A stretch of 64,000 nt of DNA from Tropicimonas sp. IMCC34043 (GTDB lineage Bacteria; Pseudomonadota; Alphaproteobacteria; Rhodobacterales; Rhodobacteraceae), in the NCBI RefSeq assembly GCF_003390845.1, contig NZ_QMEK01000005.1:224020-288019 (forward strand). The letters are read 5' to 3'. Shown here one piece after another: positions 4,977-44,310 of the stretch. The notes beneath the pieces are model-generated. The model was not told the origin of the DNA. It was given only the letters and a program-made list of their open reading frames with translations, and made no database searches. The first letter of the stretch is position 1. The number at the start of each line of letters is the position of its first letter. Position numbers and translations under genes: made by a program.

Positions 4977-5566
4977 GAGCTTTTCCTCCTTGCCGGACGG
5001 CGCGACCTCCTCTTGCCGCGGGCGCCGGTTCATTTGACGTTGGGCAAACATGCGGGCGGCACCCCGAGTCTGTCAATAAATCCTAGGCGGTGAAATTTAT
5101 TTCATCCTGTGGCTCGGTCCGGTCGCCGGCATGTGCGCCCGACGCCTCGACAGCTTTGGCCACAGCGAGAGGCGCCCGGCAGGACGGCAGAAGCGGCACT
5201 GGGACGTGGTTGGCGCGACCCTCGACGGCAGGATCCGGGACCGGCGCGGAGATCCACGTTCAAGGCGGCGGGGGTGCCGCCGTGACAGCCAACGCTGTGG
5301 GATTGGACCGCGGCCCAGAAATTCATTCATAGCTTAAACAACGTTTTATAGATCACTGATAGAAATACAGGCTACGTGCGCCAATCCTGGCGTCGACGGT
5401 CGCTGCAAAATAAGTCGTGTAATGATAATTATGTAAAATATTACTTAACCGCGCGTGCGGATGAGGTGCGGCTGTTCCTGCGCCGGCGTCGCAAGGCTTT
5501 CAAGCGGCATCGGCTTGATCCCGGGGCCTGAGCAGACTAACTGGGTCGTTCCCTTCCATACTGGCG
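4977..5566. other. long divergent intergenic region with an AT-rich block
   Basis: 590 bases without a convincing gene between the minus-strand sugar ABC operon and the plus-strand MYG1-family gene. Short open frames on both strands in 5090-5340 look like noise. 5330-5460 is strikingly AT-rich for this genome, with runs such as AATGATAATTATGTAAAATA near 5422-5441. It probably holds promoters for both flanking units; no regulator site can be named there with confidence. Confidence 0.6.
5048..5104 (-). promoter_or_regulatory. putative promoter and operator of the sugar ABC operon
   Basis: On the minus strand a consensus -35 TTGACA lies at 5076-5071, followed after 17-18 bases by a weak -10 (CATGTT-like, around 5052-5047). 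Just upstream of the -35 is an inverted repeat with 6-bp arms, TGAAATTTATTTCA (5091-5104). The layout, about 70-125 bases before the binding-protein start, suits control by the SorC-type regulator of this cluster. Inferred from sequence only. Confidence 0.45.
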
Positions 5567-6502
5567 ATGCCTCCCATGCCCCTGCGCTACCTTGTTACCC
5601 ACTCCGGCGGCTTTCATGCCGATGAGGTGCTGGCCTCCGTCATCCTCACCCGTCTGCATCCCGATGCCGAAATCGTGCGAAGCCGCGAGCGCGCGTGGAT
5701 CACGCCCGGGCCGGATCGGATCGTCTATGATGTCGGCGGCGCGTTCGACCCCGAGGCGGGGATTTTCGACCATCACCAACGCGGCGCGCCGCAGCGCGAG
5801 GACGGGCAGCCGTTCAGCGCCTTCGGTCTTGTCTGGCGGCAGTTCGGGCGCGATTACCTGCGGGCTCTCGACGTGCCCGAGACGGATCTGGACGCCATCC
5901 ATGCCAGTTTCGACGCGGCTTTCGTGGTACCGGTCGACATGGTCGATACCGGCACGCTGTCGTCGGGTGCGGCGGGTCCGCTGGCCGCAATGACCCTGCC
6001 CGGGTTGATCGAGACGCTGAAACCGGTCTTTGACGAGACCGGGCTCGAGGCAGAGACGCGCGCCTTTCACGATGCCCTCGGTATCGCGCGCAGCTTTGTC
6101 GAGGCGCGGGTGGCGCGCAGTGCGGCAAAGCTCCGGGCCGAAGCCATCGTCATGGCGACAATCGAACGTACGGGCGACGGCCGGGTTCTGGAATTGCCGA
6201 CCGGCATGCCGTTCCGCCCGGCGGTGGTGAAGGCGCAGGCCGATCATTTGCTGTTCGTGGTAACGCCCCGCGGCGAAGAATGGTCTTTGGGCGGAATCCG
6301 GCTGGCCGACGACGGCTTCGCGCAGCGCGCCGACCTGCCCGAGGCCTGGGCCGGCCTGACCGGCGCGGAACTGGAGCAAGCCTCGGGCGTCGACGGCGCG
6401 CTGTTCTGCCATACCGGGCGCTTCATTGCCACCGCCCGGACCCGCGACGCGATACTCGCCATGGCGGACAAGGCTGTCGATGAGGCGCTAGGCAACAACT
6501 GA
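5567..6502 (+). CDS. MYG1/GAMM1-family (UPF0160) DHH-like metal-dependent hydrolase
   Basis: 311 residues, usual for bacterial members of the MYG1 family. The N-terminus has THSGGFHADEVLASV (about residues 11-25) and the motif IFDHHQRG near residue 66, corresponding to the conserved DHH-type metal-binding positions. Eukaryotic MYG1 has been described as a 3'-5' RNA exonuclease; bacterial function is not established. An alternative start three codons downstream (MPLRY) would lose nothing conserved. It stands alone, converging on the LysR gene with a 29-base gap. Confidence 0.88.
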   Translation: MPPMPLRYLVTHSGGFHADEVLASVILTRLHPDAEIVRSRERAWITPGPDRIVYDVGGAFDPEAGIFDHHQRGAPQREDGQPFSAFGLVWRQFGRDYLRALDVPETDLDAIHASFDAAFVVPVDMVDTGTLSSGAAGPLAAMTLPGLIETLKPVFDETGLEAETRAFHDALGIARSFVEARVARSAAKLRAEAIVMATIERTGDGRVLELPTGMPFRPAVVKAQADHLLFVVTPRGEEWSLGGIRLADDGFAQRADLPEAWAGLTGAELEQASGVDGALFCHTGRFIATARTRDAILAMADKAVDEALGNN

Positions 6503-6531
6503 TCCGGGGATCGGACGGGACAGGCCTGTGG

Positions 6532-7461
6532 TCAGCCCGAGCCTGCGTTCTCCATGAAAGCCTGAAGCTGCGGCACCATGAAATCCAGGAAGGCCCGGAC
6601 CCGATGTGGCATGCGGGCCCCGCCGAGGAACAGCGCGTGGACATCCTCGGTGTCGCCTTCCACAGCCTCGCTCAGAACCTCGACCAGCCGGCCCGCCTGC
6701 AGGTCCTCGCGGATGTGGAACTCGCCGATGCGTGCCAGCCCCGCGCCGGCCAGCGCCATGCGCCGCACGGTCTCGCCATTGTTGGCCAGAAGCGGGCCGG
6801 CGGCGGCGCGGTCCAGCATCCGTCCGTTGTCGCGCAGCGGCCAGAGCGGCGTCGAGCGGCGGAAGTTGAGGCCAAGGCAGGCGTGGCCGGCGAGATCGCC
6901 AAGCGTGACCGGCGTTCCATTCCGCTGCAGGTACTCGGGCGAGGCGACGATCTTGCGTGGCGCCGTGCCGATCTTGCGGGCGGTCAGGCTGGAACTCGCC
7001 AGCGCCCCCACACGGAACGCGACATCGGTGCGGTCGAGGTAGAGATCGACCACCTCGTCCGAGATCGACAGGTCGACGACGATGCTCGGGAACTCCCGCC
7101 AGAAGGCGGGAAGCAGCGGTTCGACCGCGACCATGCCGAAGCCGACCGAGGCCGTGACCCGCACCGTGCCGGTGATGCTGGCCGCGCCGCGCGACAGATC
7201 GCGCTCGACCGCGTCGAGATCGGCCAGCAGCGCCTGACTGCGGTCGTAATAGATCCGCCCTTCCTCGGTCAGCGACAGCCGCCGGGTCGAACGTTCGAGC
7301 AGCCGCACGCCGAGCCGCGCCTCGATCCGCCCGATCAGTTTCGAGACGGTCGAGGGCGTCATCAGCATCTGCCGCGCGGCTTCCGAGAAACTGCCCGAGT
7401 CCACCACGCGCAGGAAGACCTGCATTTCGCCCGCCCGGTTGTCCATGTCGCGCTGTACCAT
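6532..7461 (-). CDS. LysR-family transcriptional regulator
   Basis: 309 residues. The N-terminal winged helix-turn-helix spans about residues 8-66 (EMQVFLRVVDSGSFSEAARQ; STVSKLIGRIEARLGVRLLE), followed by the LysR substrate-binding domain. The subgroup resembles YafC/DsdC-like small-effector regulators (GAASITGTVRVTASVGFG). It is divergent from the MFS exporter gene, the classical layout for a LysR regulator and its target, so it may control that exporter. Effector unknown. Confidence 0.92.
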   Translation of the reverse strand: MVQRDMDNRAGEMQVFLRVVDSGSFSEAARQMLMTPSTVSKLIGRIEARLGVRLLERSTRRLSLTEEGRIYYDRSQALLADLDAVERDLSRGAASITGTVRVTASVGFGMVAVEPLLPAFWREFPSIVVDLSISDEVVDLYLDRTDVAFRVGALASSSLTARKIGTAPRKIVASPEYLQRNGTPVTLGDLAGHACLGLNFRRSTPLWPLRDNGRMLDRAAAGPLLANNGETVRRMALAGAGLARIGEFHIREDLQAGRLVEVLSEAVEGDTEDVHALFLGGARMPHRVRAFLDFMVPQLQAFMENAGSG

Positions 7462-7597
7462 GAATTGAATTCACAGATGAAGTGCCTTTCTGGCGGATTA
7501 TCGCCAGTTGGAGCAGCGTCTATTCAGCAGGTCAGGAAACCGGGTCGCGCACCCCACCAGAACACGTGCGCGGCATTGCCACGACAGGAGACACCAC

Positions 7598-7699
7598 ATG
7601 CACCACGTGATCGTTCACGCGGCCGAGATCCCAATGCCTGCCCGCTCTGACAGCCGCCGCGTCAGCCCCGAAGATCTTGCGCCGGACCGGGCGTCGTGA
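7598..7699 (+). CDS. possible 33-residue leader peptide upstream of MFS gene
   Basis: A short frame beginning MHHVIVHAAEIP follows the purine-rich stretch ACAGGAG and ends at 7699, 23 bases before the MFS start. It has no recognisable domain. It could be a translated leader or a remnant of a small gene. Low confidence because such frames occur by chance in GC-rich DNA. Confidence 0.2.
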   Translation: MHHVIVHAAEIPMPARSDSRRVSPEDLAPDRAS

Positions 7700-7722
7700 C
7701 CGGTCTGCGAAAGGACACAGCC

Positions 7723-8901
7723 ATGAACCGTCCCAGCCTCAACTGGCCATTGCTGGCCCTCGCCGTGGGCGCCTTCGGGATCGGCGTGACCGAGTTCTCA
7801 CCCATGGGCATGCTGCCCGTCATCGCCGAGGGCGTTGGCGTGTCGATCCCCACTGCCGGGCTGTTGGTCAGTGCCTATGCGCTTGGCGTGATGATTGGCG
7901 CGCCGGTGATGACGCTGCTGCTCGCGCGCTTCGGCAAACGCACGGCACTGATGATGCTGATGGCGATCTTCACGCTTGGCAACGTGATGTCCGCGCTGTC
8001 GCCGGACTATTGGACGCTTCTTGCCTCGCGCGTCGTTACCAGCCTGAACCATGGCGCTTTCTTCGGGCTCGGCGCGGTCGTCGCGGCAAGCGTCGTTGCC
8101 CCCGAAAAGCGCGCCAGCGCCGTTGCGGCGATGTTCATGGGCCTGACCATCGCCAACGTCTTGGGCGTGCCGCTTGCCACCTGGGTCGGCCAGCAGGTCG
8201 GCTGGCGCACGGCCTTCGCGGGGACTGCGCTTCTTGGCCTTCTGACCATTGCGGCCCTTGCGCTGGCGTTGCCGCGCGGCGCCGCCGGTCAGGCCCCCGA
8301 CGTGCGCCGCGAGCTGCGCGTGCTGACGCGGGCACCGGTGTTGATCGCGCTGTTGACCACGGTCATGGGCTCCAGCGCAATGTTCGTGCTCTACACCTAC
8401 GTGGCCCCGATCCTCGAGACGCTGACACATGCCTCGGGTGGGTTCATCACGGTGGCGCTGGTTGTCATCGGGCTTGGCTTTACCTTCGGCAACTGGCTCG
8501 GGGGGCGGGTCGCCGACTGGTCGCTCGACGGGGCCACGACGATCTTCCTCGGAGCGATGAGCGCGATCATGCTGGTATCGCCGGTCCTGCTGCGCACCCC
8601 TGTCGGCGCGCTGCCGACGCTGTTTCTCTGGGGGGCTGCCGCCTTTGCCATCGTGCCGCCGGTGCAGATGCGCGTGATGCGGGCGGCCGAGGACGCGCCG
8701 GGCCTTGCCTCGTCGATCAACATCGGGGCGTTCAACCTCGGCAATGCGATCGGCGCGGCGCTCGGTGGCGCGGTGATCAGCGCGGGCCTCGGCTATGCCA
8801 TGGTGCCGGTGGCCGGGGCGTTGACGGCCGCGGCCGGGCTGTCGCTGGTCTGGCTTGGCCGGCGGAACAATGTCGACCGAACCGCGATCTGCGACGTCTG
8901 A
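7723..8901 (+). CDS. MFS transporter, AraJ/YdhP-like drug or sugar exporter (DHA1 type)
   Basis: 392 residues from ATG 7723 (MNRPSLNWP), preferred over an ATG at 7696 because AAAGGA precedes it and family proteins begin this way. Twelve hydrophobic segments are evident. The opening segment, GAFGIGVTEFSPMGMLPVIA, matches the DHA1 subgroup of AraJ, YdhP and NepI. Members export arabinose, purine nucleosides or drugs. The divergent LysR gene is the likely regulator. A strong hairpin follows the stop. Confidence 0.88.
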   Translation: MNRPSLNWPLLALAVGAFGIGVTEFSPMGMLPVIAEGVGVSIPTAGLLVSAYALGVMIGAPVMTLLLARFGKRTALMMLMAIFTLGNVMSALSPDYWTLLASRVVTSLNHGAFFGLGAVVAASVVAPEKRASAVAAMFMGLTIANVLGVPLATWVGQQVGWRTAFAGTALLGLLTIAALALALPRGAAGQAPDVRRELRVLTRAPVLIALLTTVMGSSAMFVLYTYVAPILETLTHASGGFITVALVVIGLGFTFGNWLGGRVADWSLDGATTIFLGAMSAIMLVSPVLLRTPVGALPTLFLWGAAAFAIVPPVQMRVMRAAEDAPGLASSINIGAFNLGNAIGAALGGAVISAGLGYAMVPVAGALTAAAGLSLVWLGRRNNVDRTAICDV

Positions 8902-8909
8902 CGCGACGC

Positions 8910-8938
8910 GGCATGCCGGCTGAACCGGCCGGCATGCC
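8910..8938 (+). terminator. hairpin after the MFS gene
   Basis: A perfect 11-bp inverted repeat (GGCATGCCGGC / GCCGGCATGCC, 7-base loop) begins 9 bases after the MFS stop. There is no clear U-tract, but position and stem stability suit a transcription terminator. Confidence 0.5.
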
Positions 8939-9147
8939 CACCAAGGCAGCGCACCTTGTGGCGCAAGGGATGCGCGTCCGCCGCGGCGACGGTGACGACC
9001 CCAAAGGGTTGAACGCGGCCGTCCGGTGAAAAACCTGCTGACAAATGCGGCGTTCCGCGCGTATGACGAATGGCCCTGTCGGGCCACGCAGCCCGGGATC
9101 GGGCGAGTCGCCCGGCGGGGGTGGACGCAACGGGAGGAGGCGCCAAG

Positions 9148-9834
9148 ATGCCCGACTTCGATCTGGTGATCTTCGACTGCGACGGCGTGCTGATCGACAG
9201 CGAAGTGATCTCGGCCCGGATGCTGGTGGCAGAGCTTGCCGCCTTGGGCGTTGCGGTCGATCTTCCCTATGTCGCCCGCCATTTCCTTGGTCGCAGCTAT
9301 CCGGTGGTTCTGGCCCAGATCCGCCAGGAGTTCGGCCTCGATCTGCCGCCAGAGTTCGAGGACGACTATCGCCGCCGGCTGCTTGCCGCCTTCGATGGCG
9401 AACTTCGGGCGATGCCCGGCGTGCGCGAGGCGATCGAACGCCTGAGGCGCCCCTATTGCCTCGCGACCAGTTCCAGCCCGACGCGGGTCAACCGCTCGCT
9501 CGACATCGTCGGGCTGAGCGGGTTGTTTCAGGGCCGGATCTTCACCGCCTCCGAAGTTGCGCGCGGCAAACCGGCGCCGGATCTGTTTTTGCATGTCGCC
9601 GCGCGCATGGGGGCCGCCCCGGATCGCTGCCTGGTGATCGAGGACAGTCTCAACGGGGTCCGGGCGGGTCTCGCCGCCGGCATGACCGTCTGGCAGTTCA
9701 CCGGCGGCAGCCACATGCAGGGTCTCGCGCAGGTGATGGATGCAAATGTCGAGCCTCATCGCAGGTTTGCATCTTTCGATGACTTCAGTAATCCTGTACC
9801 GACCCTCGAACGAGGCGAGGCACCCCATGAATGA
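9148..9834 (+). CDS. HAD-superfamily phosphatase (subfamily IA), polyol operon associated
   Basis: 228 residues from ATG 9148, which follows a strong GGGAGGAGG site. HAD motif I is IFDCDGVLIDSE (about residues 7-18), motif II is TSSSPTRVNRS, motif III includes the lysine of GKPAPDLF, and motif IV is VIEDSLNGV. The set matches the phosphoglycolate phosphatase / beta-phosphoglucomutase group. HAD-IA proteins accompany Smo-type polyol operons in Rhodobacterales and may dephosphorylate a sugar phosphate. It overlaps the following regulator gene by 8 bases. Confidence 0.88.
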   Translation: MPDFDLVIFDCDGVLIDSEVISARMLVAELAALGVAVDLPYVARHFLGRSYPVVLAQIRQEFGLDLPPEFEDDYRRRLLAAFDGELRAMPGVREAIERLRRPYCLATSSSPTRVNRSLDIVGLSGLFQGRIFTASEVARGKPAPDLFLHVAARMGAAPDRCLVIEDSLNGVRAGLAAGMTVWQFTGGSHMQGLAQVMDANVEPHRRFASFDDFSNPVPTLERGEAPHE

Positions 9835-10792
9835 TCCCAGCTTTCCCGAGGCCGAAATCGCCCCACTGGACGAAGCGGCCCGGGCCGGCTGGCTGTATTA
9901 TGTCGGCGGCAAGACCCAGGACCAGATTGCGCGCCAGCTCGGGATTTCGCGCCAACGCGCCCAACGGCTGGTGGCGCGTGCGGTCGCCGAGGGGCTGATC
10001 CATTTCCGGCTCGATCACCGCATTGCCCGCTGTCTGGAGCTTGAGGCAGACCTTCGCCGCCTCCGCGGGCTGCGGATCTGCCGGGTGGCGCCAAGCCTCG
10101 GGGCGGGCTCGGAGCCGGTGCGGTCGATTGCGCCTGTGGCCGCGGCCGAGATGGAGCGCATCCTCGACGTGCCCGATCCGCTTGTGGTGGCCGTCGGCAC
10201 CGGACGGGCGCTGCGCGCCGCGGTCGAACAGATCCACACCTTCAAATGTCCGCAACACCGCCTTGTTTCGCTCAACGGCAATATCTCGCCCGACGGATCG
10301 GCCTCGCATTACGACGTGCTGATGCGGCTCGCCGACCGGGTATCGGCCGACCAGTATCCGATGCCCCTGCCCGTCGTCGCATCGAGCCTCGAGGAACGCG
10401 AGCTGTTTCATTCGTTGACGCCGGTGCGGCGCAATGTGGCGCTGGCGCGGCAGGCGCTGATCACCTTCGTCGGCGTCGGCCACGCCTCGGATACCGCGCC
10501 GATGCTGCGCGACGGCTTTCTCAGTGAACCCGAGTTCCGCGAGATCCAGGCCGCCGGCGCCGTGGGCGAGATCGTCGGGTGGTTCTATGACGAGTCGGGC
10601 CAGTATCTCGATGCCGAACCGAACCGGCGGGTGGCGGGCGTTCGCGTCGAACCGCCGGGCGACAGCGACAAGCTGGTGATCGGGGTCGCCGCCGGCGTTG
10701 AAAAGATCGCGGCCCTGCGCGGCGCGATTTCCGGGCGGATTATCAACGGATTGATTACCGACGAGGATACGGCCGCCGCTTTGCTGGCCTGA
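9827..10792 (+). CDS. smoC: SorC-type regulator of the polyol operon (SmoC-like)
   Basis: 321 residues from ATG 9827, overlapping the HAD stop by 8 bases. Helix-turn-helix at about residues 25-50 (GKTQDQIARQLGISRQRAQR) then the SorC sugar-binding domain (VAVGTGRALRAAVEQI; FVGVGHASDTAPML; AGVRVEPPGDSDKLV). It precedes the smoEFGK-mtlK operon directly, as smoC does in Rhodobacter, so it is the expected regulator of sorbitol/mannitol uptake. A perfect 14-bp palindrome before smoE is a candidate binding site. Confidence 0.85.
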   Translation: MNDPSFPEAEIAPLDEAARAGWLYYVGGKTQDQIARQLGISRQRAQRLVARAVAEGLIHFRLDHRIARCLELEADLRRLRGLRICRVAPSLGAGSEPVRSIAPVAAAEMERILDVPDPLVVAVGTGRALRAAVEQIHTFKCPQHRLVSLNGNISPDGSASHYDVLMRLADRVSADQYPMPLPVVASSLEERELFHSLTPVRRNVALARQALITFVGVGHASDTAPMLRDGFLSEPEFREIQAAGAVGEIVGWFYDESGQYLDAEPNRRVAGVRVEPPGDSDKLVIGVAAGVEKIAALRGAISGRIINGLITDEDTAAALLA

Positions 10793-36282: not shown

Positions 36283-36603
36283 GTGCCAACGTGGGTCTGC
36301 GATGAACCACAAAGGCGGACGATCATATCGGAGATTATCACAGTAGAGCTTAATCTGGCGAAGAACGTGTTTCGGGTTCATGGAACTGACGGCACAGGTC
36401 GAGCGGTCTTGCGCAACAAACTGCGGCGAGCGCAGTTGCTGGGGTTCTTCAGTCAGGTGCCATCTTGTGTCGTCGCCATGGAGGCAAGCGTTGGCGCACA
36501 TTTCTGGGGCCTTGAGATCGACAAGTTGGGCCATGAAGTGCCGCTCGTCAGCGTATTCCGGAACATCGAGACTCAAGCCCCGGACCTGAAAGCTGCCGCC
36601 TGA
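36283..36603 (+). pseudogene. IS110-family transposase N-terminal fragment
   Basis: The frame holds the IS110 N-terminal motif ELNLAKNVFRVHGTDGTGRA, then RRAQLLGFFSQVPSCVVAME and GLEIDKLGHEVPLV. Similarity stops near residue 85 and the frame ends at 36603, so the DEDD catalytic domain and transposase C-terminus are lost. The first catalytic aspartate position is occupied by asparagine (ELN instead of the usual VDL), another sign of decay. Confidence 0.7.
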
Positions 36604-36880: not shown

Positions 36881-37067
36881 GTGGATGGGCAGACTTTACT
36901 TTGGATTCAGGGAACTTCCGGGGGGGGGCGAGCAGTGGCCGTAAACCCATGCCCCATTGTCAAGCCCGAAAGAGGGTTGATTGTGTGGCAGACGAGGGAG
37001 TAAGCGGGAGAACGTTCGATGTGAACGACAATCATTCGGAGCCGCGAAAGCGTGTGCTGGCAGCGAG

Positions 37068-38789
37068 ATGTTAGTTTTTCACGATATAACCCCTCCTCTC
37101 AAGGCGTCAGAAATGTCGCTTGAAGACGTGGCGAAGTACCTGGGTTTTGAACCCAAATGGATCAATTACCTTGTCAACGTCGACGACCAACGCAGGGTGG
37201 TTTATTTCGAGACGCCTAAGGTCGGCTGCACCACAATCAAACTTCTCATGCAGGAAGCGTATGTCGGCAGAAAGATCGACTTCGGACCGGACCCATATCT
37301 GGTCCACGATCGCGGCCGCTCGCCCTTGCTGCAGCTTGGGCCGATGTCGCCTGAAGATCGCGCAGAGGCATTGTTTGGCGCCTCATTCTCCCGTTTCGGG
37401 TTTGTTCGCCATCCGACCCGGCGTGCCATCTCTGCCTACAGGGACAAATATGCCAACCTCAACAATCCGGAACGGGAACATCATCTTTTTCGCATCGGTC
37501 TGAAAGCGGAGGACGACCCCAGTCTGCTTGAGGTGCTTGAGCGCATGAAGGACTTGGGTGACATCGGCCGAGATATCCACTTCATGACACAGAACTTCCT
37601 GCTTGGTTCTGGCCATGTGAATTTCGACTTCGTTGGCCGCTTCGAGACATTTGGCGAAGACCTGGAGACCATCCTGTACCATCTCTATCCAGGCACGCGG
37701 TTTGACCTGGGGGAAAATAGCGCCTTTACGGCAAGACACGCCACCGGAGCGGATCTGGCGCAAATAAGTGCCCAGGAGGAGCAACTGATCTATGAGATGT
37801 ACCGCGACGATTTCGAGCGCTTTAACTATTCACCGCTGCATATGAATTCGCCGGTGGTGGTACCAAACACGGCGGCAGACGATCCTGGGCCTGCGAACAA
37901 GCCCTTGACGACCGATGCTGCAGAGCAACGATCGATTCAGGAACCCGGGAATGCCGCGGCCCCCACTGTCTTTCAATGCGACTGGTTCGAATGGAAAGTC
38001 GGTCAGGGGTTGGCGCAGGCGAAGAGCGAAGATACCTCCGCGTTGCAGGCAACTGAACGCGAATTCTTCAATCTTCTGTTCATCGAACTGCTTGAGCGGC
38101 AAAAAGAAGGACGTGGCCAGACACGGGACCTAATCGAGTTTTTTTCGTTTGCAATAGCTAACATAGACCGTAGCCATGCCCAAATCCTCCAAGATCTTTG
38201 GGTCCTTTTTATGACCAAAGAGAAGCGCATGGGCTACTTCGTCGAGTTTGGCGCGTGTGATGGCATCTCGCTCAGCAATACGCTCCTGCTCGAGCGGGAT
38301 TACGACTGGAACGGAATTCTGGCTGAACCCAACCCGAACTGGATCGATCGTCTCAAACAAAACCGAAAGGTTTCGATCGACACGGATTGCGTTTTTCCAG
38401 TCTCCGGCAAGACGGTTACCTTTCAATGTGTGATGGACGAACCCGAACTGTCCCGAGTAAGTGAATTCGTCCCCAACGATGTCCACGAGCGTCACGGAAA
38501 TCGTAAGAACATGCAGATCGTGGATGTGCAGACAGTGTCACTTCAAGACCTTCTCCTGCGACACGGCGCGCCGAACAAGATCGATTTCATGTCGGTTGAC
38601 ACCGAAGGGTCCGAATTTGAGATTCTCAGCCAGTTCGACTTCGACAGGTTCGACGTCCATCTTTTGGCAGTGGAACATGCCGGCGACGAAGACAAGCGAG
38701 AGAAAACCCGCGCACTGCTTGAGGGCCGAGGCTACAAGCTGTGGTATCCAGAGTTTTCGCGATGGGATGACTGGTTTTATCGCGAATAG
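37068..38789 (+). CDS. bifunctional sulfotransferase-FkbM methyltransferase fusion
   Basis: 573 residues from ATG 37068 (an earlier in-frame ATG at 36981 lacks a good site; 37113 is an alternative). The N-terminal half is a family 2 carbohydrate sulfotransferase: 5'-phosphosulfate loop FETPKVGCTTIK (residues 48-59) and 3'-phosphate motif RFGFVRHPTRRAISAYRDKY (about 108-127). A linker (about 245-385) leads to an FkbM-type methyltransferase: GYFVEFGACDGISLSNTLLL near 389 and NKIDFMSVDTEGSEFEIL near 505. Both domains usually modify surface or secreted glycans. Base composition is visibly lower in GC than the core genes. The stop is 8 bases from an IS256 scar. Confidence 0.8.
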   Translation: MLVFHDITPPLKASEMSLEDVAKYLGFEPKWINYLVNVDDQRRVVYFETPKVGCTTIKLLMQEAYVGRKIDFGPDPYLVHDRGRSPLLQLGPMSPEDRAEALFGASFSRFGFVRHPTRRAISAYRDKYANLNNPEREHHLFRIGLKAEDDPSLLEVLERMKDLGDIGRDIHFMTQNFLLGSGHVNFDFVGRFETFGEDLETILYHLYPGTRFDLGENSAFTARHATGADLAQISAQEEQLIYEMYRDDFERFNYSPLHMNSPVVVPNTAADDPGPANKPLTTDAAEQRSIQEPGNAAAPTVFQCDWFEWKVGQGLAQAKSEDTSALQATEREFFNLLFIELLERQKEGRGQTRDLIEFFSFAIANIDRSHAQILQDLWVLFMTKEKRMGYFVEFGACDGISLSNTLLLERDYDWNGILAEPNPNWIDRLKQNRKVSIDTDCVFPVSGKTVTFQCVMDEPELSRVSEFVPNDVHERHGNRKNMQIVDVQTVSLQDLLLRHGAPNKIDFMSVDTEGSEFEILSQFDFDRFDVHLLAVEHAGDEDKREKTRALLEGRGYKLWYPEFSRWDDWFYRE

Positions 38790-39513: not shown

Positions 39514-40581
39514 CTATTTCCCACGCCTGCGAAAGATACTCTTGCCGAAGGTTCGGATATCTCTGAAGGAGGGAATCGACTTAACTGCAGGTAAATCCTG
39601 TTCGGCCAGCGACTTGTTGTGAAGCTGAAGCATCAGTGCACGGTTCTGACGCCGAAGTTCTTGGATCGTCGCAGTCGTTTCCAGGTTGTTGACGCCACCC
39701 TGCGCCTCGACATCCGAAAGATGCTCGGCGCCGTACAGCAACATGTCATTCGCGGTGCAAATGACCGGCTTGTCGCTGCGCTTAGCGATCTCCCGTGCCT
39801 GCTTCCAGTTGCTTTCCACGAACAGCACTTCGCTTCGCGACTTGTAGATCTCGGCCTTGAATGGTGCGTGCGCCTTCAGACGGCGCCGCTCGGCCGCGGT
39901 GGGCAGATCGAGCATGATCAGCTCGCCGTATTGAATCTCGTTCCGGGCCAGCCAATCTTCCGTCTCCGCCCGATATTTCTCGAGCCGCGACGTGACAATC
40001 CCGCTAATCCTCCGCTTCGGACAGGCTAGTATCTGTGCCGTCGCAATGAATTTCAGGTATTCTTCACCATCATCGTTCTGCTCGTCAGTCGGGTCAACGC
40101 AAAGCACCCCGTCAAGGTCGAATAACGCATGTTCGGCAATAACGTGGTTGCGATAGTTCCACTGAAAGAACCGCGGTTGATCAACATATGCAAGGACGAT
40201 ATCGGTGACGTCCTCATGCATCCCAGGCCGGATCCCATAAACGGCGCAGTAAACAAAATCGTGCTCCGCTCCGAAATGACTCAAGCGGGATCTTACTGTC
40301 CGGAACTCACGACCGGAGTTGACGGAGTCGTCGACGATCAGCACGCGCATCTTTTCAGGTCCGACAGCCGAGTGCTGGCGGCGCTCGCCCGAACGCGGGC
40401 TGTAGCGGAACAGAAAGGAGTCGAGATCGATGAACTCGCGGTTCAGGAACGTCGCAATCATCATCGCCGGGATTAGCCCCGATTTTGGAACTCCGACAAC
40501 AATATCGACAGGGGGAAGGCTGGCAAGTCCCGCTGCAACGTCGCGCGCTAGATCCCCATAGGTCTTGTAGTTAAACGGCAC
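39514..40581 (-). CDS. dual-domain phosphoribosyltransferase-HAD phosphatase, ribofuranosyltransferase-like
   Basis: 355 residues. The N-terminal half (about 1-150) is a type I phosphoribosyltransferase: VDIVVGVPKSGLIPAMM, then the PRPP loop VLIVDDSVNSGREF (residues 80-93). The C-terminal half (about 150-290) is HAD-like: motif I FDLDGVL with D155 and D157, motif II IVTSR, then K247 and FVES. A coiled tail (TIQELRRQNRALMLQLHNKS) follows. The two-domain layout matches ribofuranosyltransferases described from Klebsiella O-antigen loci, in which PRPP donates phosphoribose to a glycan and the phosphatase removes the 5-phosphate. Glycan genes all around agree. Acceptor unknown; a nucleotide-salvage role is less likely. 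Confidence 0.72.
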   Translation of the reverse strand: MPFNYKTYGDLARDVAAGLASLPPVDIVVGVPKSGLIPAMMIATFLNREFIDLDSFLFRYSPRSGERRQHSAVGPEKMRVLIVDDSVNSGREFRTVRSRLSHFGAEHDFVYCAVYGIRPGMHEDVTDIVLAYVDQPRFFQWNYRNHVIAEHALFDLDGVLCVDPTDEQNDDGEEYLKFIATAQILACPKRRISGIVTSRLEKYRAETEDWLARNEIQYGELIMLDLPTAAERRRLKAHAPFKAEIYKSRSEVLFVESNWKQAREIAKRSDKPVICTANDMLLYGAEHLSDVEAQGGVNNLETTATIQELRRQNRALMLQLHNKSLAEQDLPAVKSIPSFRDIRTFGKSIFRRRGK

Positions 40582-40857: not shown

Positions 40858-42909
40858 TCAGTGCCGCATGTACTTGAAAATAGAGGCGATACCCACGAGA
40901 TCGCTGGCCGGCACATCGCCCTTTTCGCCCGAACCCCGCACCAGACGGTTGCGCAAGATAGCGCTATATTCCAAGTGCTTGTCACGGCCGGCGGTAATAC
41001 TGTTTCCGAACGCAATACTCTCGCTGCGATCTCGCACATGGTAGTTGGCAAGGTAGTCGGGCAAGACTGCTATGTCCGTGCGGCTAAGCACCTTGAGGTT
41101 GAAGTCCCAGTCGCCCAGCACCGGAAGTGTCGGATCGAATCCCCCGACCTCGTCGTAGATATCCCTGCGGAACAGGAAGCTGATCGGTGGGAACGAGTTC
41201 GAGATCGCATGCTCCGCAAGATAGATTATCTCGAGGTTGGGGTTGTAGGGCCTAACCTCGTGGGCTTCTATTCCATCCGGATGCACGCTTTCGGAAACCA
41301 GCATGCTGCGCGAAACAACGCCGCCGTATTTCTGGCCAGGTGCGCTTTCCAGAAATTTCACCGTCTCCGCCAGAAAATCGTGGTGCCAAGTGTCGTCGTC
41401 ATCATGAATGACGATGAACTTTGAATCGCAGGCTCCGACGGCAAGATTCGATGCCGCCTCCATGCCCCGATTGGCCACCCCGTCCACCACTACAATCTTG
41501 CTGTGTTCGACGTTGGCGACGCGGATTGCTTCCAGCACATCTTCTATCGGACCGCCGTCACACACCACCACATGGACATAGTTCCGGAACGTCTGCTGGG
41601 ATACACTTTCCAGCGCCCGGCGCAGCATCATCGGGCGATCCATTGTCCTGGTTATAACCGCGACGGCGGGGCGGGTGGCAGTGTTCAGTGCCGATGTGTC
41701 CGGTTCCGGCGCGGCCTTCGGGAATGTGGATTTCTGAACAGAGCGCGCCATGCCGGGCTCGTATTCCAGCGCGATCTGCCCCTGCGTCCAAAGTGCGCGG
41801 CTCAGCCGCTCGTCAGCACTCGAAAGCTCGTCGGGACCGTAAAGCACAGGAACCTGGAACCGCCGACCAAAATCCGCGCTGCGCGCCGAGTTGAGGAAAA
41901 GCGCTGCGGTCTCACGATCCGGGGTCAGAATGCGTTCGAACAGTCTTGCCCACGCCGCTTCGGCACGCCGGGCGATTTCCCACGGGTCCTTTGGCCCAGT
42001 TTCGAGATAAACAATCACGCCCGCGAAAAGCGGGTCGCTGCGCCACGCCTGTCGGGCCCTCTCGCAGGCTGCCGCACCGGGAACCACGACACGTCCATTG
42101 GTGCCGCTCTCATAGCATTCAATGCTTGGTGCATCAGGCTCGAACAGAATCTCGATCAGATGCCGGAATGCGACTGCTGCGGTCCGCGGCTTTGCCGGGT
42201 CCACATAGTCGCTCTGGAAAGCGAGGCCTAGCGCTTGCCGCCAAACACTGCGATCAGTTTCGCCCGAGCCGATCAGCCCGAAATAGGCGCCCCACCAGTC
42301 CACGTCGGAAATCGCCTTCGTCAACAGACGCTGGCTGGTAGCCTGCCAGCCCGTATCGACGATCAGGGCGGTTTCCCGGCCACCCAGCAAACGGGCAAGC
42401 TCCATTTCGAACAAATCTGACTGCGTCTCAAGATGCTTGATCAGGTCGCCCGAATTGGAATTGCGCAGTAACTCGCCTATCCTGTGCTTCGACTTCGGCT
42501 GATAGAATGCGCCGGAATCGAGGTCACGAATTAGGTGTTCCTGTCCCATAATACACTGGGCAGCGATATCTGCCGGAGTATTGCAGAATTCGCTTTCGAG
42601 CATCTTGGTCGCAAGTTCAGGCGCCCGCTTCCAGATGCCTTTGGCAATCATCAACCGAGAAACCCAGAAATCTTCCCATTCCTCTGGAAGGGCTTGCCCC
42701 TTCGAGCCAACGAAGACTTCGAGCGCCTGACGAATCCTTACACCAGCTCGTGCCGAAAAGAGAATTTTCGCGTCGCGCTGCCGATCGAAATAAAGGGCGT
42801 TTTCCCAGAGGTTTTGCAGAAATTCTGCGACCGCCGGCCCAAGATCATCGTGTCCAAAGGCATAAAGGGCCTCATCGCTCCCACTGCGGCGGTCGTCCGA
42901 GATATTCAT
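40858..42909 (-). CDS. COG5610-type C-terminal region fused to GT2 glycosyltransferase
   Basis: 683 residues. The first 330 or so resemble the region that follows the HAD domain in large COG5610-like proteins (FGHDDLGPAVAEFLQNLWEN; DAKILFSARAGVRIRQALEV). Residues about 405-640 are a GT2 (GT-A) glycosyltransferase: AVITRTMDRPMMLRRALESV and the metal-binding IHDDDDTW. It is in the same reading frame as the upstream HAD gene, separated only by TAA, GAA, ATG, and lacks a strong ribosome site. The pair may be one gene cut by a nonsense mutation, or two coupled genes. GC lower than core genes. Confidence 0.78.
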   Translation of the reverse strand: MNISDDRRSGSDEALYAFGHDDLGPAVAEFLQNLWENALYFDRQRDAKILFSARAGVRIRQALEVFVGSKGQALPEEWEDFWVSRLMIAKGIWKRAPELATKMLESEFCNTPADIAAQCIMGQEHLIRDLDSGAFYQPKSKHRIGELLRNSNSGDLIKHLETQSDLFEMELARLLGGRETALIVDTGWQATSQRLLTKAISDVDWWGAYFGLIGSGETDRSVWRQALGLAFQSDYVDPAKPRTAAVAFRHLIEILFEPDAPSIECYESGTNGRVVVPGAAACERARQAWRSDPLFAGVIVYLETGPKDPWEIARRAEAAWARLFERILTPDRETAALFLNSARSADFGRRFQVPVLYGPDELSSADERLSRALWTQGQIALEYEPGMARSVQKSTFPKAAPEPDTSALNTATRPAVAVITRTMDRPMMLRRALESVSQQTFRNYVHVVVCDGGPIEDVLEAIRVANVEHSKIVVVDGVANRGMEAASNLAVGACDSKFIVIHDDDDTWHHDFLAETVKFLESAPGQKYGGVVSRSMLVSESVHPDGIEAHEVRPYNPNLEIIYLAEHAISNSFPPISFLFRRDIYDEVGGFDPTLPVLGDWDFNLKVLSRTDIAVLPDYLANYHVRDRSESIAFGNSITAGRDKHLEYSAILRNRLVRGSGEKGDVPASDLVGIASIFKYMRH

Positions 42910-42912
42910 TTC

Positions 42913-44310
42913 TTACACTTTTGCCCAGCTTCTGATGTCGACACCTGCATTCCGACTTCTTTCTATCGACCTTTGCAGCGACTTTTCCCGGGACCGAACG
43001 AGGTTCTGCGAGACCGGCAAATGGCCCACCGCCCAACCGGCTTCTCTAGGGTTGCGAACGTCGGAAACAAAGGAATCCCCGATGTGCAGAAAATCCTCGG
43101 GCCGCAGGCCCATTTCTGCTTCGATCTCCGCAAATATTAGCCCCGAACGCTTGCTTACAATCGTATCGGCGCTGCTGAAGACCTTATTGATCTTCAAAAA
43201 GCCTTCAGGATCGACCCGGGTGCAGATGTCGTTGATGACCGCGGCCGGAAGATACATGTCGCTAAGGCCAATGATGCTCATTCCGGCGTCCACCGCGGCG
43301 GCCATGACCGGGCGGAGCAAGGGATTTGGGCGCAACACCGTCGATTCATAGGCGATTTCATATTCTATCAGCTGCGCAGCAACCGTAGAGTCTCCGCCTA
43401 GCGCACCTGCGACGACCGCTGCGACGTCCTCGATCGTTCCTTCGCCAGCCCCGTTCCGTCGTGGCCGACAACGATAGGTCGTCTGCATCGCCGACTTGCG
43501 CAAAAGAGTCAGTCCCTCGGGAGAAATGCTCTCGACCAGATCACCGAGACCGTTCTGCGCTAATTGCTTGAGAATGAACTCCGAAAGCTGAAAGTACCGA
43601 TCCGCCTCCGCATCTCCGTTTCGCAGAAGAAACGTGTCGAAGATGTCCAGTGACAGACATTTCTTGCCAGCACATGCATCAATGTATTGCGTCGAAACCC
43701 GCGGGGCATTGTCTTGCAGCCAGCCGATACGGTCTTCGGCCGCGTCATAGTCTGAGGGTAGCGCGGCGAGGCGCAACTTGATTGGATCTTCTTCGCCCGC
43801 GCCAATATCGATGCGCCCGCAGGCCTCCAATGCCAGCACGACAGGAACCTGCGCGGTCTCTGAGTGCATCTTGTGCGAACCGCCATCAAACAAGTTCAAT
43901 CGCTCTGCAGATGCAGACACGGAATGATGGGCGGGAGCGGACGCTACATGGGTAGCGGTGCCGGACCCCGACGAAAGGATTTTCTCGAGCTTCTTGCTGC
44001 GACGCCGGCTCAGCCAAACGAGTCCCAGAAATGCCGATTTGGCGAATTTGGCCTTCTTCTCTTGGGATACTCCGGGAAGCTTCATTGCCGCACTAAGCAA
44101 AAGAACTTCGAATATCGATTTCTTCTTTAAATGGCGCGACAGGCTAGACGCATCGATGCCGGTTCGGTAGGACCTGATGCTGCGCACCAGTTCATTTGTC
44201 GTTTTGTCATGCTTCATGCACTGCACCAGCCGGCTTATTCTTCTGCCACTTCGGACCTTATCCAGTACGACAGGATGGTTGTCCATAACCAATTCGTCTG
44301 ACCGGAACAA
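42913..44310 (-). CDS. HAD-superfamily protein, N-terminal part of a COG5610-like glycan enzyme
   Basis: 465 residues. HAD motif I is CLSLDIFDTFLLRNGD with D222 and D225; the region SIIGLSDMYLPAAVINDI carries motif II, and FLHIGDSFVSDVRNPREAGW near residue 415 carries motif IV, all matching COG5610 predicted hydrolases of polysaccharide loci. The first 200 residues are basic and not recognisable. It ends with a single TAA in frame with the next gene, whose start is the continuation of the family. Start could also be the internal MDNHPVV (residue 9). Confidence 0.75.
   Translation of the reverse strand: MFRSDELVMDNHPVVLDKVRSGRRISRLVQCMKHDKTTNELVRSIRSYRTGIDASSLSRHLKKKSIFEVLLLSAAMKLPGVSQEKKAKFAKSAFLGLVWLSRRRSKKLEKILSSGSGTATHVASAPAHHSVSASAERLNLFDGGSHKMHSETAQVPVVLALEACGRIDIGAGEEDPIKLRLAALPSDYDAAEDRIGWLQDNAPRVSTQYIDACAGKKCLSLDIFDTFLLRNGDAEADRYFQLSEFILKQLAQNGLGDLVESISPEGLTLLRKSAMQTTYRCRPRRNGAGEGTIEDVAAVVAGALGGDSTVAAQLIEYEIAYESTVLRPNPLLRPVMAAAVDAGMSIIGLSDMYLPAAVINDICTRVDPEGFLKINKVFSSADTIVSKRSGLIFAEIEAEMGLRPEDFLHIGDSFVSDVRNPREAGWAVGHLPVSQNLVRSREKSLQRSIERSRNAGVDIRSWAKV

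What the first reader, a model, noticed from the sequence alone, without database searches (positions are those of the whole stretch)
39514..40581. Dual-domain PRPP-dependent ribofuranosyltransferase candidate in a glycan island
Seen: one 355-residue protein joins a type I phosphoribosyltransferase (PRPP loop VLIVDDSVNSGREF) to a HAD phosphatase (FDLDGVL). Known: dual-domain ribofuranosyltransferases of Klebsiella O-antigen loci use PRPP to add phosphoribose to a glycan, then a fused HAD-type phosphatase removes the 5-phosphate. Inference: this gene adds ribofuranose to a surface polysaccharide, next to a HAD/GT2 protein and a sulfotransferase-methyltransferase. A ribofuranosylated, possibly sulfated and methylated glycan in a Rhodobacterales-type bacterium would be new to me.
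Basis: partly seen in the sequence, partly recalled or inferred. Interest (0 to 1): 0.78.

Follow-up and report, generated by a model that had tools for sequence, protein, structure and literature searches.

The report
Second family of glycan ribose transferases
This gene encodes a single protein that joins a phosphoribosyltransferase domain to a phosphatase-type domain; relatives of it are fused to sugar-transferring enzymes and sit in polysaccharide gene clusters, so it likely attaches ribose to a surface sugar chain from the common donor PRPP, probably as a second enzyme family doing a job known so far from an apparently unrelated one.

The parts
39514..40581 (-). PRT-HAD protein, 355 aa (candidate PRPP-dependent glycan ribofuranosyltransferase)
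40147..40581 (-). N-terminal type I phosphoribosyltransferase domain, residues about 1-145
40477..40494 (-). GVPKSG loop, residues 30-35 (pyrophosphate loop by analogy with type I PRTs, recalled)
40303..40344 (-). PRPP loop VLIVDDSVNSGREF, residues 80-93; DD invariant, the catalytic Asp position of purine PRTs holds N88
40141..40176 (-). family signature PRFFQWNYRNHV, residues 136-147, between the two domains; P136, R137, W141, N142 invariant in 86 of 86
39742..40143 (-). C-terminal HAD domain, residues about 147-280
40090..40122 (-). HAD motif I FDLDGVLCVDP, residues 154-164
40858..42909 (-). 683-aa protein with a C-terminal family 2 glycosyltransferase domain, upstream in the same direction
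   Evidence: relatives
42913..44310 (-). HAD-related protein, 465 aa, first gene of the same-strand run
36981..38789 (+). sulfotransferase (Sulfotransfer_2) - FkbM methyltransferase fusion, 602 aa, convergent neighbour

Best explanation
The protein joins a phosphoribosyltransferase domain of predicted purine-salvage fold to a HAD phosphatase domain, and it likely transfers ribofuranose-5-phosphate from PRPP to a sugar chain and then likely removes the 5-phosphate, which would leave beta-ribofuranose on a surface glycan. Shown here: the two domains, their invariant catalytic residues, the loss of the purine-recognition residues, fusion of relatives to several kinds of glycosyltransferase, and, in Mesorhizobium, a place in the exo polysaccharide locus where the gene is present, absent or decayed together with a GMC oxidoreductase. 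Inferred: PRPP binds the conserved DD loop; inversion of alpha-PRPP gives a beta-riboside; the HAD domain frees O5; in Mesorhizobium the GMC enzyme then oxidises C5 to give the terminal beta-riburonic acid known from the R7A exopolysaccharide. In the window's Rhodobacteraceae host no such oxidoreductase was found by one search, so the product there would be a ribofuranosyl residue, possibly methylated by the neighbouring FkbM domain; its acceptor would be made by the adjacent HAD and GT2 genes.
For: (1) PRPP-loop DD and HAD D155xD157, T197-S198, K242, E256 in 86 of 86. (2) Purine site lost: Asp at position 88 in 4 of 86, Lys at 117 in 0 of 86 (positions from the alignments to solved purine PRTs). 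(3) Fusions: 185 long relatives at E<=1e-10, 120 listed, 111 of the 120 with a glycosyltransferase-type Pfam accession (which accessions are of that type is recalled); five fused proteins scanned here have GT2, GT4 or capsule-synthesis domains above Pfam cut-off, before or after the PRT-HAD unit. (4) Context: glycosyltransferase-like ORFs in 66 of 80 loci against 1 of 20 hand-spaced stretches of a Mesorhizobium and a Flavobacterium genome. (5) Mesorhizobium exo locus L012: matches to S. meliloti ExoN, O, M, A, K, U and to the unannotated stretches where exoL and exoP belong (47-70%), and a weak one to ExoT (25%), surround PRT-HAD, an extra GT4, UDP-glucose dehydrogenase, GMC and a small gene that have no match in that S. 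meliloti locus. Same order in M. japonicum MAFF303099, with ExoY, ExoF and ExoQ, and no region of 38 kb best matched by ExoW, V or H (genome identified by an exact pMLa match). R7A EPS: Glc:Gal:GlcA:riburonic acid 5:1:1:1, terminal beta-riburonic acid (review PMC8227245, passages). ExoY, five Exo glucosyltransferases (roles recalled from succinoglycan) and one GT4 leave one sugar for PRT-HAD. (6) Of 146 Mesorhizobium genomes 90 have PRT-HAD and GMC (all within 5.3 kb), 48 neither, 6 PRT only (2 of them remnants), 2 GMC only. (7) In 4 of the 50 genomes without the gene the exo locus was read: exo genes and UGDH 75-98% identical, PRT-HAD, GMC and the small gene all absent, GT4 kept in 3; those 3 hold two further ORFs weakly GT4-like (E 3e-7 to 3e-9).
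Against: No assay. The nearest folds are nucleobase PRTs, and nothing tested excludes an unusual base or a lipid as acceptor. The four island genes include no Wzx, Wzy or exporter, and no GMC partner was found in the genome, so the final glycan is unknown. The gene is rare in the genus (1 of 9 genomes, the window's own) and family (4 of 198, own included). 14 of 56 non-Mesorhizobium loci had no glycosyltransferase hit, 6 of them with 20 kb of sequence; the profiles were seeded from test loci. A Rhizobium etli homologue sits beside a caspase-type gene and type VI secretion genes, though also a family 28 glycosyltransferase. Co-occurrence in Mesorhizobium was not corrected for phylogeny, and 8 of 146 genomes are discordant. 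The fourth locus without the gene (L098) also lacks the GT4 and showed no substitute transferase with these profiles. The riburonic acid structure is from R7A, while the locus read here is from MAFF303099 (the review states that the cluster is present in both).
Confidence: 0.8

Rival explanations
1. It is a nucleoside-forming enzyme: the PRT couples PRPP to a nucleobase-like acceptor and the HAD domain acts as a 5'-nucleotidase; the neighbourhood with glycan genes is incidental or serves a nucleoside-decorated glycan.
For: Fold and profile matches to purine PRTs; HAD domain closest to a 3'-phosphatase of nucleic acid repair; some source names read 'hypoxanthine phosphoribosyltransferase'.
Against: Purine general-base Asp and Lys lost; fusion partners are glycosyltransferases; present in the Mesorhizobium exo locus where one sugar lacks a transferase.
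Confidence: 0.08
2. It transfers phosphoribose to a polyprenyl phosphate, giving a lipid-linked ribose donor that a separate enzyme uses, as the UbiA-type PPPRS does in Citrobacter.
For: The small partner gene in Mesorhizobium has a twin-arginine-like start (by eye), so oxidation may be periplasmic and could act on a lipid-linked intermediate; the Citrobacter ORF15 also combines a PRPP enzyme with a HAD domain (PMC11127046, passages).
Against: The fold is that of soluble type I PRTs, not UbiA (no membrane predictor was run); no cassette gene scanned had a GT-C type Pfam match; direct fusion to GT2/GT4 domains suggests a glycan acceptor.
Confidence: 0.06
3. It is an ordinary member of the Klebsiella/Hib gPRT-PRP ribofuranosyltransferase family.
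For: Same two kinds of domain in one protein; same kind of gene neighbourhood.
Against: No Bcs3-type sequence among 52 profile matches in the PDB; nearest folds are purine PRTs; DD motif intact where CriT uses D680/E818 (passages); PRT before HAD instead of after it as in Bcs3 and Cj1432.
Confidence: 0.03
4. In the window the gene is a horizontally acquired passenger without a working glycan partner; the family function is as stated, but here nothing is ribosylated.
For: Low-GC3 island, 1 of 9 genomes in the genus; no exporter or polymerase among the island genes.
Against: Reading frame and motifs intact; neighbouring HAD, GT2 and sulfotransferase/FkbM genes are also open frames, and their relatives occur together in L134 without PRT-HAD.
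Confidence: 0.12

Closest known systems
gPRT-PRP dual-domain ribofuranosyltransferases (Klebsiella O4/O7 enzymes, Hib Bcs3 CriT-CrpP, Campylobacter Cj1432, E. coli KrkA)
   Same: PRPP-type transferase and HAD phosphatase in one polypeptide, with or fused to glycosyltransferases in surface polysaccharide loci; the same two-step logic is inferred.
   Different: No sequence relation detected; purine-PRT-type predicted fold with intact DD motif instead of the divergent CriT fold; PRT first, HAD second, opposite to Bcs3 and Cj1432.
Type I purine PRTs (archaeal HGXPRT, enteric XGPRT)
   Different: General-base Asp and purine-binding Lys lost; invariant PRxFQWN segment; fused HAD; glycan context.
HAD phosphatases of the T4 Pnkp 3'-phosphatase type
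   Different: Low identity (14-18%), fused to a PRT, motif IV reads F-x-E-S.
UbiA-type polyprenyl-phosphoribose synthases (Citrobacter ORF15, mycobacterial DPPRS)
   Same: PRPP as donor (inferred here); ORF15 also carries a HAD phosphatase (PMC11127046, passages).
   Different: Those are integral membrane UbiA proteins that charge a lipid; this has a type I PRT fold.

Membership tests
gPRT-PRP ribofuranosyltransferases | PRT-like transferase plus HAD phosphatase in one protein | tested here: met
gPRT-PRP ribofuranosyltransferases | HAD before the transferase domain (Bcs3, Cj1432; one paper, PMC12887879, words it the other way) | tested here: not met
   PRT residues 1-145, HAD 147-280; papers in passages
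gPRT-PRP ribofuranosyltransferases | vicinal DD motif replaced by acidic residues in separate loops (CriT D680, E818) | tested here: not met
   D84 D85 in 86 of 86; CriT description from PMC10299916 passages
gPRT-PRP ribofuranosyltransferases | sequence or fold similarity to Bcs3 / the Thermobacillus structure | tested here: inconclusive
   none among 52 profile matches at E<=1, but that these entries are in the copy was not checked; absence from the fold lists proves nothing
gPRT-PRP ribofuranosyltransferases | PRPP-dependent beta-Ribf transfer in vitro | not testable with these tools
   needs an enzyme assay
Type I purine phosphoribosyltransferases | fold and PRPP/pyrophosphate loops | tested here: met
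Type I purine phosphoribosyltransferases | general-base Asp in the PRPP loop and Lys for the 6-oxo group (roles recalled) | tested here: not met
   Asp in 4 of 86, Lys in 0 of 86
HAD phosphatase superfamily | motifs DxD, S/T, K, acidic motif IV on a HAD fold | tested here: met
UbiA polyprenyl-phosphoribose synthase | integral membrane UbiA fold | tested here: not met
   the model has a type I PRT fold; no membrane predictor was run

The most novel reading that the evidence does not exclude
A widespread family filed in part as hypoxanthine phosphoribosyltransferase is a second, independently evolved class of PRPP-dependent glycan ribofuranosyltransferase: a purine-salvage enzyme whose base site was rebuilt for a sugar hydroxyl, fused to a HAD phosphatase. 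In Mesorhizobium, with a GMC oxidoreductase, it makes the terminal beta-riburonic acid of the exopolysaccharide that Lotus reads through its receptor EPR3.
Probability: 0.72. Interest if true: 0.85.

Novelty: new variant of a known kind. Interest (0 to 1): 0.73.

Why it matters
In the papers seen here, ribofuranose enters bacterial glycans through one divergent PRT family or through a UbiA lipid route (passages). A second family, larger than a thousand proteins and partly hidden under purine-salvage names, would let ribose and riburonic acid be predicted from genomes of rhizobia, flavobacteria, gut Bacteroidota and Rhodobacteraceae. It also gives a concrete, testable gene set for riburonic acid in the Mesorhizobium exopolysaccharide; reviews report that the plant receptor EPR3 senses native EPS and a truncated form that lacks riburonic acid (PMC7816849, passage).

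Tried and rejected
Filing under gPRT-PRP: rejected on motif and domain order; fold lists that lack Bcs3 were not used as proof. Domain order is not a clean marker, because PMC12887879 describes the known enzymes in the other order. Ordinary purine PRT: rejected on lost Asp and Lys. A nucleoside-like metabolite role as in tellurite-type operons (recalled idea): one literature search found one unrelated paper. Broken C-terminus: the near relatives L003-L005 carry a GT4-like part after the PRT-HAD unit (for L003), but close stand-alone relatives exist (P0001, 63% identity, 346 aa), so the window protein is not read as truncated. Broken HAD/GT2 gene: the ORFs 42913-44310 and 40858-42909 are in one frame, separated by a stop and one codon, but both relatives looked at (L133, L134) also keep two ORFs, so this is not read as damage. 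A GMC partner in the window genome: none at E<=1e-10 (the tool notes that an empty answer shows little). Phage records: no match. Promoter and terminator scans: no more than shuffles give. Literature on this family as a glycan enzyme: not found in the searches, 92 of the open library; look-ups of two subscription papers by recalled DOI failed, and the original R7A mutant paper was not looked up, so their content is from reviews or recalled.

Full report
WHAT IS THERE. The ORF 39514-40581 (-) is intact, starts with GTG and encodes 355 aa; the genome of 4.6 Mb has one strong place for it, the next hit at E 0.01. Residues 1-145 are a type I phosphoribosyltransferase, 147-280 a HAD domain, and the rest a mostly helical tail (pLDDT 89.7, pTM 0.78). 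Pfam sees only the PRT, below its cut-off; the family profile matches archaeal purine PRTs with E 2e-10.

THE FAMILY. One protein search gave 1329 relatives at E<=1e-5 (120 listed). A genome-contig scan found 359 relatives, of which the best 80 loci were kept: Mesorhizobium and other Alphaproteobacteria, Flavobacteriia, Bacteroidales, Endomicrobia, Lachnospiraceae. In an alignment of 86 (the window protein and 85 hand-picked ones of the 120 listed) the PRPP-loop aspartates, P136, R137, W141, N142 and the HAD motif residues named above are identical. Two residues that purine PRTs need (general-base Asp, purine-contacting Lys; roles recalled) are gone: Asp at position 88 in 4 of 86, Lys at 117 in 0 of 86. 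So the PRPP side is kept and the base side is rebuilt.

FUSIONS. Searching with the PRT-HAD part of a 916-aa relative, among proteins of about 504-1603 aa, gave 185 hits at E<=1e-10; of the 120 listed I count 111 with a glycosyltransferase-type Pfam accession (types recalled; one protein counts through PF04765 alone) and nine without. The first forty or so mostly carry GT4 accessions like the query; the rest show other partners (GT2, PF01501, PF04765, PF05045, PF05050). A search among proteins of about 1010-3220 aa listed 58 entries, partly the same. The length windows select for fusions; the informative point is what the partners are. Five fused proteins were scanned directly: L003 (PRT-HAD-GT4), L007 (GT2, capsule-synthesis domain, GT2, then PRT-HAD), L014 and L042 (GT2-PRT-HAD), L044 (PRT-HAD-GT2). 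In L003 and L005 the gene just upstream is an FkbM methyltransferase, the same domain type as in the window's sulfotransferase-FkbM neighbour.

CONTEXT CONTROL. With two home-made glycosyltransferase profiles (seeded from these loci and the window, which favours the test set), 24 of 24 Mesorhizobium-type loci and 42 of 56 others held at least one hit, against 1 of 20 stretches of 20 kb that I spaced by hand over a Mesorhizobium chromosome (not among the test genomes) and a Flavobacterium contig (the source of L034). Of the 14 without a hit, 8 are loci under 13 kb and 6 hold about 20 kb.

MESORHIZOBIUM AS A NATURAL EXPERIMENT. In L012 the gene lies in an exo locus: proteins that match annotated S. 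meliloti ExoN, O, M, A, K and U and the unannotated stretches where exoL and exoP belong (labels mine; 47-70%), and an ExoT relative (25%), flank five genes without match in that locus: PRT-HAD, a GT4, a small protein with a twin-arginine-like start (by eye; no Pfam match), a GMC oxidoreductase and UDP-glucose dehydrogenase. MAFF303099 has the same order with ExoY, ExoF and ExoQ, and no region of the 38 kb is best matched by ExoW, ExoV or ExoH. Reviews report for the R7A EPS a Glc:Gal:GlcA:riburonic acid ratio of 5:1:1:1, riburonic acid terminal and beta, and state that the exo cluster is present in both strains (PMC8227245, passages); mutants in mlr5265 and mlr5266 are symbiotically impaired (PMC6144797, passage; I could not assign these numbers to genes). 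Seven conventional transferases (ExoY, A, L, M, O, U and the GT4; sugar roles recalled from succinoglycan, GlcA for the GT4 inferred) account for Gal, five Glc and GlcA; the eighth sugar, riburonic acid, has only PRT-HAD left among the genes read. A PRPP enzyme that inverts gives the observed beta anomer, and removal of the 5-phosphate is what oxidation at C5 to the uronic acid requires.

CO-OCCURRENCE. Of 146 genomes of the genus, 96 have a PRT-HAD match (94 intact, 2 remnants with stops) and 92 the GMC orthologue at E<=1e-120: 90 both, all within 5.3 kb, 6 PRT only (including both remnants), 2 GMC only, 48 neither (Fisher p 3e-29, not corrected for descent; contig ends not checked for the discordant ones). 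ExoA is found in 136. I read 4 of the 50 loci without the gene, three of them chosen for the most similar ExoA (L095-L098): exo genes and UGDH are 75-98% identical to L012, and PRT-HAD, GMC and the small gene are absent in all four; three keep the GT4 (79-81%) and have a divergent Wzx (43%) and two further ORFs that are weakly GT4-like (E 3e-7 to 3e-9); the fourth, L098, has neither the GT4 nor a substitute that these profiles find. The two loci with PRT-HAD remnants (L099, L100) lack GMC and the small gene but keep the GT4 and UGDH (partial at the contig edge in L100). The cassette therefore behaves like the module for one sugar, and in three loci it seems exchanged for glycosyltransferases. 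A GMC gene near PRT-HAD recurs in Rhodobacteraceae: L087 (Rhodobacter plasmid: GMC, polysaccharide flippase-type gene, PRT-HAD, GT4, second PRT-HAD) and L102. Weak GMC matches 7-8 kb away also appear in five flavobacterial loci (22-26% identity).

THE WINDOW. Relatives place the host in Rhodobacteraceae (genome G158 of the same family has the contig of L004, titled Rhodobacteraceae). The gene is in 1 of 9 genomes of the genus, the window's own, and 4 of 198 sampled from the family. The four island genes have low GC3. HAD/GT2 relatives at E<=1e-60 are in 3 of 244 genomes of the order, own included; in one of them (L134) HAD, HAD/GT2, FkbM and sulfotransferase matches occur together without a PRT-HAD match in 20 kb (FkbM 57%, sulfotransferase 42% identity), so PRT-HAD looks like an optional addition to an existing glycan module. 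What the glycan is, and whether it is exported, is open. No GMC partner was found in this genome.

VERDICT. Shown: architecture, motifs, fusions, co-inheritance. Inferred: donor, acceptor, anomer, order of steps. I commit to a PRPP-dependent glycan ribofuranosyltransferase of a second family, at 0.8. In the open library I found no paper that describes this family as a glycan enzyme (listings); subscription papers could not be searched.

Noticed in passing
window 36283-36603: ORF that reads like an N-terminal fragment of an IS110-type transposase (recognised by eye, recalled, not scanned), at the edge of the low-GC3 island.
   Followed up: no
window 42913-44310 and 40858-42909: Two HAD-related ORFs in the same frame separated by one stop and one codon; both relatives looked at also have two ORFs, so the split seems natural.
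   Followed up: partly
L134 (about 5400-10100): HAD, HAD/GT2, FkbM and sulfotransferase matches together without PRT-HAD; there FkbM and sulfotransferase lie in separate matches, in the window they are one protein.
   Followed up: partly
L106 2044-6683 (MAFF303099, beside exo): Asparagine-synthase-like and NTP_transf_5 genes beside the exo locus (Pfam), resembling a lasso-peptide-type cluster (recalled resemblance).
   Followed up: no
L086 (Rhizobium etli IE4803 plasmid): PRT-HAD homologue beside a caspase-family gene, a family 28 glycosyltransferase and type VI secretion genes, with a UbiA / GtrA-like / FAD-oxidoreductase / SDR set a few kb away that recalls the decaprenyl-arabinose pathway.
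   Followed up: no
L087 12004-15582: Two PRT-HAD genes (52% identical) flank one GT4 in Rhodobacter sp. CZR27; perhaps two ribosyl additions to one glycan.
   Followed up: no
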